A stretch of DNA of 64,000 nt from Pseudoxanthomonas sp. Root65. Lineage in GTDB: Bacteria > Pseudomonadota > Gammaproteobacteria > Xanthomonadales > Xanthomonadaceae. The translations under genes and the position numbers were made by a program. This document shows, piece after piece, positions 13,953 through 15,753 of this stretch (its first letter is position 1; each line of letters starts with the position of its first letter). Location: assembly GCF_001427635.1 (NCBI RefSeq), contig NZ_LMHA01000002.1:124001-188000 (forward strand). Reading direction: 5' to 3'. A model generated the notes under the pieces. That model was not told the DNA's origin. It searched no databases and was given only the letters and a program-made list of their open reading frames with translations.

Positions 13953-15089
13953 ATGTTGTCCCGCACTCCTTTTCTCGCTTGTGCCGTGTTGCTGACCGCC
14001 GTACTGCTGGCCGCCTGTCGTCCGTCGGAACAGGATGTCGCATCCGATGCCATGGCCGAAGCCCCGGCGGCCGCGTCGCCGGCGCAGGACACGCCGGCGC
14101 AGCAGGCGGAGCGGGGCGATGGCGCGGTGTCGTCCGGTCCGCCGGCCTCGCCGGCCAGGGCGCCGGCGGAAGGGCTGCCGACCGACTGGCCGACCGCAAC
14201 CGTGCAGTCCGGCGAGGCCCGGGTCAGCTGCCAAGCCGAGTACAACACCGACGAAGGCGACGGCGCCCCGCTGGAGTCGCTCGCCTTCTTCAGCGTGGTC
14301 GATGCGCTGTCGCCCTGCCAGAAGGGCGGCGTGCTGCGCTTGCGCTACCAGGGCAAGATCGCGGCCGATTTCACCGACCTGGTCGCTCGGGTGGCCGACA
14401 TCGCCGGCCGCATGGGCATCCACAAGCGCATCCTAGACCTCGATTCGGCCGGCGGACAGGTCGAGGATGCGATCAAGGCCGGCGACGTCATCGGGGCGGA
14501 TGGCTGGACCATCTGGGTACGCGAGGGTTCGATCTGCCACAGCGCCTGCGTGTTCGTGCTGGGGGCGGGCGACAACCGTCTGATCTCCGGCAAGGTGGGC
14601 GTGCACCGCATCATCCGCATGAGTTCCACCGCCACCACGCGCGCCGAGCTCAACGACGAACTGCGCGGTGTCTACGGACGCGTCAAGGACTATCTGGAGC
14701 GCAACGGCGTGGCGGTCGCCATCGCCGACCTGATGATGACCGTGCCCAACCGCCGCCTGCGCCTGCTGAGCAAGGACGAACTGCAGGAATACGGGCTGGA
14801 CGGCACCAACGCCGCGCAGGACGACCTGGACCGGCTGCGGCTGATGCGTCGCTGCGGCGAGGATTTCGTGCTGCGTCGCGATGCCTTCATGCGCAGCTTC
14901 GATGGCGAGTGCAAGACCGCCGGCGCGGGGCTGGACGAGATGCAGGCCTGCGGACTGGCGCTGCGCACGCGGTTCGGATTCCCGGATGCCGAATGCCCGG
15001 CCGACAGCCCGCTGTCCGAGTTCGACCGCATGGCCGACAGTGACGAGGCACCGGTGGTGTTGCCCGAGACGGCCGGCACGTCGCCGTAA
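13953..15089 (+). CDS. ClpP-like periplasmic lipoprotein (COG3904 type)
   Basis: The 378-residue protein opens with a lipoprotein signal ending LLAAC, with Cys22 as the lipidated residue, followed by an Ala/Pro-rich linker to about residue 85. The folded part resembles a ClpP/crotonase domain: RILDLDSAGGQVEDAIKAGD is the oxyanion-hole region, SICHSACVFVLGAG holds a candidate serine nucleophile at 197 in the H-S-A-C context, and H218 follows in KVGVHRI. This matches COG3904-type predicted periplasmic proteins. Proteolysis is an inference; no substrate is known. GTG 13941 is an alternative start adding four residues. It converges on the S4 gene across the 21-bp repeat array. Confidence 0.78.
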   Translation: MLSRTPFLACAVLLTAVLLAACRPSEQDVASDAMAEAPAAASPAQDTPAQQAERGDGAVSSGPPASPARAPAEGLPTDWPTATVQSGEARVSCQAEYNTDEGDGAPLESLAFFSVVDALSPCQKGGVLRLRYQGKIAADFTDLVARVADIAGRMGIHKRILDLDSAGGQVEDAIKAGDVIGADGWTIWVREGSICHSACVFVLGAGDNRLISGKVGVHRIIRMSSTATTRAELNDELRGVYGRVKDYLERNGVAVAIADLMMTVPNRRLRLLSKDELQEYGLDGTNAAQDDLDRLRLMRRCGEDFVLRRDAFMRSFDGECKTAGAGLDEMQACGLALRTRFGFPDAECPADSPLSEFDRMADSDEAPVVLPETAGTSP

Positions 15090-15176
15090 GCGGCGACGGA
15101 CGTGCGTGCTGCCGTGAGCCGGCAACGCAGGCGGATCGCCGGCCGGGCCTGGCCCGACGCGCGCGTGAGGTGCCGA

Positions 15177-15457
15177 GAGAGGCGCCAAGCCTCTTTGGAG
15201 AGGCTCAGCGTGTGTCGAGAGACGCTGCCAGCCTCTCCTGAGAGGCTTTCTCCCGCTCCAGGGAGGCTTGGGGGCACACGAGAGACGCTCTACTCCGCTC
15301 CAGAGAGGTGTTGAGCCTCTTCAAAGAGGCTTGGGTCCCGCTCTGGAGAGACTTTTTCCCGCTCGGGAGAGACTTTGTCCTGCTCTGGAAAGGCTTTGTG
15401 CCGCTTCGGAGAGGCCCGGTGTCTGATGAGAGAGGCGTCCTGCCTCTCTGAAGACGC
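15177..15457. repeat. degenerate tandem array with strict 21-bp period
   Basis: A core resembling GAGAGGC (variants GAGACGC, GGGAGGC, GAGAGAC, GAAAGGC, AAGACGC) recurs with first bases at 15177, 15198, 15219, 15240, 15261, 15282, 15303, 15324, 15346, 15367, 15388, 15409, 15430 and 15451. That is fourteen copies exactly 21 bp apart except for one 22-bp step. Later units share CCCGCTCTG before the core and CTTT after it. Three cores form perfect hairpins with an upstream AGCCTCT (15188-15205, 15230-15247, 15314-15331). It lies between two convergent genes. All three minus-strand frames are largely open and give seven-residue repeats, but no start or known protein is seen. Confidence 0.85.
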
Positions 15458-15522
15458 TTTTTTGCGCTCTGGCCCGTATGGTGGTGAGTCGCGCGCCGTG
15501 CGGTGGACGCCGGCGGACGAGC

Positions 15523-15753
15523 TCAGCCGTGCGCGTCGATGATCCGGATCTCGGCGTCGTCGATGCGCACCACCTGGCCGGCGCGGATCTTCGCGGTCTT
15601 GCGCAGTTCCACCGCGCCATCCACCGTCACCGCGCCGCTGGCCACGATGGCCTTGCCCTGGCCGCCGCTGTCGGCGATGCCGACCAGCTTGAGCAGTTGG
15701 TTGAGTTCCACGTACTCGTGGCCGGCGTCCAGGTCGAAGTCGATGCGTTGCAT
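15523..15753 (-). CDS. S4-domain RNA-binding protein (YbcJ-like)
   Basis: The 76-residue protein is essentially one S4 domain of the YbcJ/RNA-binding type: YVELNQLLKLVGIADSGGQGKAIVASGAVTVDG, then a strand pair ending RAGQVVRIDDAEIRI. S4 domains bind structured RNA, as in RsuA-type pseudouridine synthases and HslR. The gene follows the membrane protein gene by 20 nt and is probably the third gene of the ECF sigma unit. ATG 15753 gives the usual length for this small family. Confidence 0.85.
   Translation of the reverse strand: MQRIDFDLDAGHEYVELNQLLKLVGIADSGGQGKAIVASGAVTVDGAVELRKTAKIRAGQVVRIDDAEIRIIDAHG

What the first reader, a model, noticed from the sequence alone, without database searches (positions are those of the whole stretch)
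15177..15457. Fourteen-copy array with a strict 21-bp period between convergent genes
A GAGAGGC-like core repeats every 21 bp, two helical turns, with only one slip (22 bp), although the units themselves have diverged widely. Strict spacing with loose sequence suggests that phase is under selection, as for same-face protein binding, or that the array arose by recent 21-nt slippage. Three units are perfect hairpins. All minus-strand frames read as seven-residue repeats. I do not know a named element with this form.
Basis: seen in the sequence. Interest (0 to 1): 0.75.

Follow-up and report, generated by a model that had tools for sequence, protein, structure and literature searches.

The report
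Phase-locked 21-bp chromosomal repeat array
Between two genes lies a row of 14 loosely similar 21-letter DNA units kept almost exactly two helix turns apart; it belongs to a family of such rows at several shared places in related bacteria, probably a landing strip for a still unknown DNA-binding protein.

Summary
It is one of a family. 840 kb of the same contig hold three more clear 21-bp arrays, and relatives carry them at recurring gene neighbourhoods. Two unit types often alternate: A units with a nearly invariant one-directional motif (TCTWCTCWCAC), and B units, 16-bp dyads whose arms co-vary between arrays, with a 5-bp A/T linker. The exact A pattern is in 12 of 38 genus genomes (59 rows, reversed control 2). 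Of 156 gaps between A motifs 147 are exact multiples of 21, nine are off by 1-2. Indels seem about tenfold rarer than non-coding neighbours predict. No clear G-T over A-C excess points to RNA, and no 10.5-bp A/T harmonic points to gyrase wrapping. Best explanation: a DNA-level array of sites on one helix face for an unidentified protein. Protein and benefit are unknown. It is not coding and does not meet the tests for REP/BIME or CRISPR. Six literature searches listed no description.

The parts
15168..15335 (.). units 1-8 of the array, strict 21-bp register
15336..15336 (.). extra base: the single 22-bp step between units 8 and 9 (exact base uncertain by a few positions)
15337..15462 (.). units 9-14, strict 21-bp register shifted by one base
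15205..15225 (-). A-type unit GCGTCTCTCGACACACGCTGA, 13 of 15 matches to an A variant seen in related arrays; best A match in the window
15189..15204 (.). B-type dyad (hairpin) GCCTCTTTGGAGAGGC
15231..15246 (.). B-type dyad GCCTCTCCTGAGAGGC
15315..15330 (.). B-type dyad GCCTCTTCAAAGAGGC
13953..15089 (+). left flanking gene, 378 aa, no Pfam match (ClpP-like by recalled resemblance); found in 30 of 38 genus genomes
15523..15753 (-). right flanking gene, S4_2 domain, converges on the array

Best explanation
A DNA-level array of protein-binding sites held on one face of the helix. Shown: two unit kinds (a directional, nearly invariant A motif and array-specific 16-bp dyads), A/T-rich 5-bp linkers, a period of 21 bp (two turns) with few slips, recurrence at the same loci in several species, and change of copy number and unit sequence while the period stays. 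Inferred: a sequence-specific protein conserved in this clade recognises the A motif; it or a partner sits on the dyads between; neighbours two turns apart touch along one face and build a nucleoprotein filament or anchor in the intergenic space. What the filament does (insulating gene ends, domain boundary or silencing) is open; insulation of gene ends is my guess because the clear loci lie 3' of at least one gene.
For: Phase: 24 of 24 within-locus gaps between exact motifs are multiples of 21 and 147 of 156 with up to 3 mismatches. Indel deficit: about 127 expected, nine seen. Sequence-specific element: A columns 9, 12, 14, 16, 17 at 0.95 or more over 192 A units of 37 arrays; 59 rows against 2 for the reversed pattern in 38 genomes. 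Dyads: 210 of 339 B units have at least 5 of 8 complementary pairs, 17% expected after column shuffling; six of eight pairs exceed all 500 shuffles across arrays. DNA rather than RNA: G-T 82, A-C 83 on the T-rich strand, and motif direction relative to neighbouring genes differs by locus (by eye). Same loci in several species with different units.
Against: No binding protein was found or sought by family. The window array itself has drifted: one clear A unit, one 22-bp step, and A-like units by the strict rule in none of its T-rich-strand units. Three of 15 syntenic species lack it. Nine gaps are off by 1-2. At array 2 the G000/G028 substitution rate is higher inside the array (24 of 273) than in the flank (6 of 160), with no indel in either. 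The blastn alignment of the window array with G028 has 9 gaps because unit numbers differ. Within arrays only 3 of 8 dyad pairs exceed the shuffles. In-register recombination could keep phase without a protein.
Confidence: 0.45

Rival explanations
1. Neutral or selfish minisatellite: units multiply by in-register recombination or slippage of 21/42-bp blocks, and the period survives because out-of-register copies recombine poorly.
For: 14 units against 19 in the sister genome, the middle rebuilt from a 42-bp pair; near-identical 126-bp blocks in G015; faster substitution inside array 2 than beside it.
Against: A motif nearly invariant over 37 arrays; indel deficit although units have diverged; arrays recur at the same loci with different units.
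Confidence: 0.25
2. Supercoil sink: phased DNA that wraps gyrase or another topology protein at gene ends, like strong gyrase sites or BIME-2.
For: Position 3' of genes; two-turn period; the E. coli gyrase motif is helix-phased in A/T and BIME-2 is enriched in gyrase cleavage sites (PMC6379681, passages seen).
Against: No excess 10.5-bp harmonic of A/T in the 21-bp units (P 0.32 all, 0.47 A, 0.30 B); a conserved sequence motif is not needed for wrapping. The separate 22-bp arrays do have an 11-bp harmonic (P 0.005).
Confidence: 0.1
3. RNA-level element: arrays are transcribed as rows of hairpins acting as terminators, 3'-end protectors or a sponge RNA.
For: Both strands of the window array fold better than shuffles (z -4.9 and -3.2); hairpin plus T-tract units in many arrays; G-T 95 against A-C 70 on the motif strand (P 0.06).
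Against: G-T 82, A-C 83 on the T-rich strand; a linker of fixed length is not needed by RNA; one terminator-like site against 0.4 expected in the window; by eye the T-rich strand agrees with the upstream gene at only about four of eight codirectional loci.
Confidence: 0.1
4. REP/BIME-type mobile palindromes moved by a RAYT transposase.
For: RAYT-like ORFs (identified by recall) stand next to arrays in L323 and L272; similar preference for spaces between unidirectional and convergent genes (PMC3733652, abstract).
Against: The palindromes beside those ORFs are a different GTAG-type sequence; units are head to tail, not alternating, and few per genome.
Confidence: 0.05
5. Remnant of a gene for a heptad-repeat protein.
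For: 21 = 3x7; true coding 21-bp periodicity exists elsewhere, for example L280 in G015.
Against: A stop in every frame of the window array, the 22-bp step, dyads.
Confidence: 0.02

Closest known systems
REP/BIME elements (GTAG- and CGTC-tagged)
   Same: Short palindromes, intergenic, mostly 3' of genes, between unidirectional or convergent genes (PMC3733652, abstract and passages)
   Different: Units are direct repeats at a strict 21 bp, without a per-unit GTAG tag, in few arrays per genome, with dyads that differ from array to array
Plasmid iterons and phased operator arrays (recalled)
   Same: Direct repeats about two helical turns apart, presumed same-face binding
   Different: Dispersed on the chromosome, two unit kinds, dyads of array-specific sequence, no replication gene among the flanking proteins scanned
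Bacterial minisatellites / VNTR loci
   Same: Tandem, unit number differs between relatives (14 and 19)
   Different: Units diverged yet in phase; one motif shared by many loci and species
Strong gyrase sites
   Same: Helix-phased pattern, gene ends (PMC6379681, passages)
   Different: No 10.5-bp A/T harmonic in the 21-bp units; conserved sequence motif

Membership tests
REP/BIME | GTAG (or CGTC) tag at one end of each palindrome | tested here: not met
   Unit listings show no such tag per unit; the CTCTAC form of the A motif contains GTAG on its complement, the CTCTTC form does not
REP/BIME | Alternating orientation of neighbouring copies | tested here: not met
   A motifs of an array run in one direction
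REP/BIME | High copy number (over 100 per genome, PMC2817692 abstract start) | tested here: inconclusive
   Six arrays known in the own genome, but only 840 kb were scanned without a motif
REP/BIME | RAYT gene flanked by the same repeat | tested here: not met
   Only the two RAYT-like neighbours seen were examined; their flanking palindromes differ from the array units
Iteron or operator array | Direct repeats with helical spacing | tested here: met
Iteron or operator array | Cognate binding protein, often encoded next to the array | tested here: inconclusive
   No replication or regulator gene common to the loci among 20 flanking proteins scanned; binding itself not testable
Minisatellite | Unit number varies between relatives | tested here: met
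   14 and 19 units
CRISPR array | Identical repeats separated by unique spacers | tested here: not met
   Units diverge and abut
Gyrase wrapping site | A/T phased at about 10.5 bp | tested here: not met
   (21-bp units); met only by the separate 22-bp arrays
Known structured RNA | Rfam match | tested here: not met
   0 matches at gathering score in the window
Protein-coding repeat | Open frame through the array | tested here: not met
   At least one stop in each of six frames

The most novel reading that the evidence does not exclude
A new class of chromosomal nucleoprotein array in which the helical period, not the sequence, is what selection keeps: dyad units change sequence from array to array through co-varying arms, a single directional motif anchors a clade-specific protein, and two sequence-unrelated array families in the same genome (21 and 22 bp) follow the same two-turn rule.
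Probability: 0.3. Interest if true: 0.85.

Novelty: new variant of a known kind. Interest (0 to 1): 0.62.

Why it matters
If the period is what is kept, these arrays are natural rulers of helical phase in a bacterial chromosome and ready-made bait for an unknown architectural or insulating protein. They can be tested with one pull-down and one half-turn insertion. They also warn that repeat finders tuned to similar copies overlook arrays that are strict in spacing but loose in sequence.

Tried and rejected
Coding heptad repeat: rejected. REP/RAYT: two RAYT-like neighbours looked at, the palindromes beside them differ. Terminator array: one site against 0.4 expected in the window; by eye the T-rich strand agrees with the upstream gene at about four of eight codirectional loci. 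Polar replication signal: motif direction changes twice within about 112 kb in G029; GC skew of G015 samples puts a sign change near 2.2 Mb, close to only one of its two arrays. Plasmid copies: no match. Random samples of G015 (400 kb), G007 (200 kb) and G053 (200 kb) gave no array that I recognised as intergenic; of the 21-bp signals there I looked at L280 and L314 (both look coding) and not at the weaker ones. A multi-unit profile failed because MAFFT staggered the tandem units, so no covariance model was built. The binding protein was not searched for. Literature: searches were seen as listings with abstract starts and none described such arrays; of PMC3733652 I saw the abstract, outline and passages, of PMC6379681 and PMC2817692 passages.

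Full report
OBSERVATION. The array lies at 15168-15462. Units 1-8 keep one 21-bp register, units 9-14 another shifted by one base, so 12 of 13 steps are 21 bp and one is 22. Lag-21 identity is 0.56; the highest value at any lag in 2000 mononucleotide shuffles is 0.40, and no other 280-bp window at lags 6-59 in the 64 kb reaches the array's 0.575. No Rfam family matches the window. Every frame has a stop inside the array.

A FAMILY, NOT A SINGLETON. A DNA search of the own genome found a second array on the same contig, with units of the same consensus at 21 bp. One sister genome of the 60 relatives searched, G028, has both; a third genome gave only a weak 25-bp match. A period census of 840 kb of own contig C2 gave four clear 21-bp arrays (about 139.2, 236.7, 611.6 and 613.3 kb) and four weak 21-bp signals (0.10-0.11); a fifth weak one lies at about 857.3 kb. 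Inspected, three of these five (658, 798, 857 kb) lie in long open frames and look coding, one (565 kb) also has an open frame, and one (717 kb) is undecided. Of periods not divisible by three, 22 gave an array of its own; 28 overlaps the 236.7-kb array, 38 is a larger dispersed-looking repeat, and 35 was not inspected. Signals at other multiples of three were not inspected. Two further arrays of the own genome, C1:647 kb and C3:468 kb, were found by motif, so six are known.

THE ORTHOLOGOUS SPACER. Of 38 genus genomes 30 have the left flanking gene. I read the spacer in 15 of these 30 (L010-L024): clear arrays in 5 (L010, L011, L014, L018, L020), by eye an A-like piece or degraded array in 6 (L012, L013, L016, L022, L023, L024), none in 3 (L015, L019, L021), and 1 (L017) unresolved by the script although one search finds array-like DNA beside that gene. 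G028 has 19 units against 14: ends conserved, middle rebuilt from a 42-bp pair in which A-like and B-like units alternate.

GRAMMAR. From 37 arrays and 531 units (edge units of three arrays trimmed by hand; register and orientation chosen by motif or by hand) two kinds emerge. A units carry TCTWCTCWCAC nearly unchanged. B units are 16-bp dyads (GCCT...AGGC, GGTCCAACGTTGGATC or GGTGTCGCGAGACC-like) with a 5-bp linker of 81% A+T in the dyad-like ones. In many arrays they alternate. Of 339 B units 210 (62%) have at least 5 of 8 complementary pairs, against 17% (maximum 24%) after column shuffling. Six of eight pairs exceed all 500 shuffles across arrays; within arrays only pairs 3/14, 7/10 and 8/9 do. 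So symmetry is kept while sequence changes mainly from array to array. In the window array the unit at 15205-15225 on the minus strand matches an A variant at 13 of 15, the best match in the window; its other units have drifted.

PHASE. Exact A pattern: 59 rows (5 are double reports) in 12 of 38 genomes, reversed control 2; all 24 within-locus gaps are multiples of 21. G028, G014 and G021 have arrays but no exact match. With up to 3 mismatches in 37 loci there were 159 gaps; 3 of 2 bp are self-overlaps and were dropped; 147 of the other 156 are multiples of 21, nine are off by 1-2. At least 2119 substitutions among units (87 in the window array) and 0.060 indels per substitution in non-coding DNA between window and G028 predict about 127 and 5 indels; nine and one are seen. 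The two sets of arrays are not identical, the coding mask was heuristic, the window array aligned by blastn to G028 shows 9 gaps because unit numbers differ, and in-register recombination could purge slips, so this is strong but not proof. The 526 of 531 in-phase units are biased, because arrays were extended in register.

DISTRIBUTION. In 200 genomes of the order 8 match the A pattern, but only the own genome shows the form ending in AAG or AAAG; none of 33 same-family genomes outside the genus matches, and 12 genomes match the reversed control. Other genus members (G003, G019, G031) have 21-bp arrays with other dyads, found through an A-tract pattern whose listing was truncated.

CONTEXT. 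Flanking proteins are unrelated (S4 domain, epimerase, SDR, GNAT, arginase, GFA, subtilase, EAL-PAS, PilZ, HsdM, beta-lactamase-fold; 13 of the 20 scanned had a Pfam match). Loci recur across species. At the locus upstream of an MTQNRI protein and at array 2 the neighbouring gene varies; one is HsdM, others look defence-like by eye only. By reading, about three of eleven clear loci are convergent, eight codirectional, none divergent; gene calls were heuristic.

DNA OR RNA. Both strands fold well, as a dyad array must. Mismatches show no G-T preference over A-C on the T-rich strand (82:83) and a weak one on the strand used as motif-forward (95:70, P 0.06; the arrays of the window and array-2 loci were entered in the opposite sense there). 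Motif direction relative to flanking genes varies by locus. I therefore favour DNA. The gyrase-wrap idea predicts a 10.5-bp A/T harmonic, which is not in excess in the 21-bp units but is, at 11 bp, in the separate 22-bp arrays (29 units).

VERDICT. A dispersed family of phase-constrained intergenic arrays in one clade of the genus, probably protein-binding, protein unknown. The closest known kinds fit only in part. Shown: anatomy, spacing, recurrence. Inferred: same-face binding and its purpose.

Noticed in passing
G000 C2:345518-345850 (L346), C3:176484 (L351); G028 C7:172768 and 61425 (L347, L352); G017 C4:679922 (L348); G020 C18:194246 (L349): A second, sequence-unrelated family of intergenic dyad arrays with a 22-bp period (about CGASATAC-N6-GTATSTCG); 5 of 38 genus genomes match at E 0.001 or better, and L347 has slips by eye. 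A/T follows an 11-bp harmonic.
   Followed up: partly
L268 4360-4500 (G003): An array with a 17-bp period and GGTCGTGACC dyads, about 2 kb from a 21-bp array.
   Followed up: no
L055 2050-2400 minus (Collimonas humicola): About six 21-bp units of a T-run plus a GAGAGACG-like core, so strict 21-bp arrays may have arisen elsewhere too.
   Followed up: no
L323 2506-2913, L272 2919-3536: RAYT-like ORFs (recalled identification) with GTAG-type palindromes stand next to 21-bp arrays; the one in L323 looks truncated.
   Followed up: partly
G000 C2 611.3 kb; locus upstream of the MTQNRI protein (C2 236.7 kb, L326, L330): Genes beside these arrays differ between species and include HsdM and, by eye, other defence-like genes; arrays may mark the edges of variable spots.
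   Followed up: no
L280 14494-19925 (G015): Long region with 21-bp periodicity that looks coding (YadA-like adhesin by recall), a useful contrast.
   Followed up: no
G000 C2:725601-726024: Tandem-like repeat with period signal 38 containing CATTCCAGCG..AGCTGGAATC palindromes.
   Followed up: no
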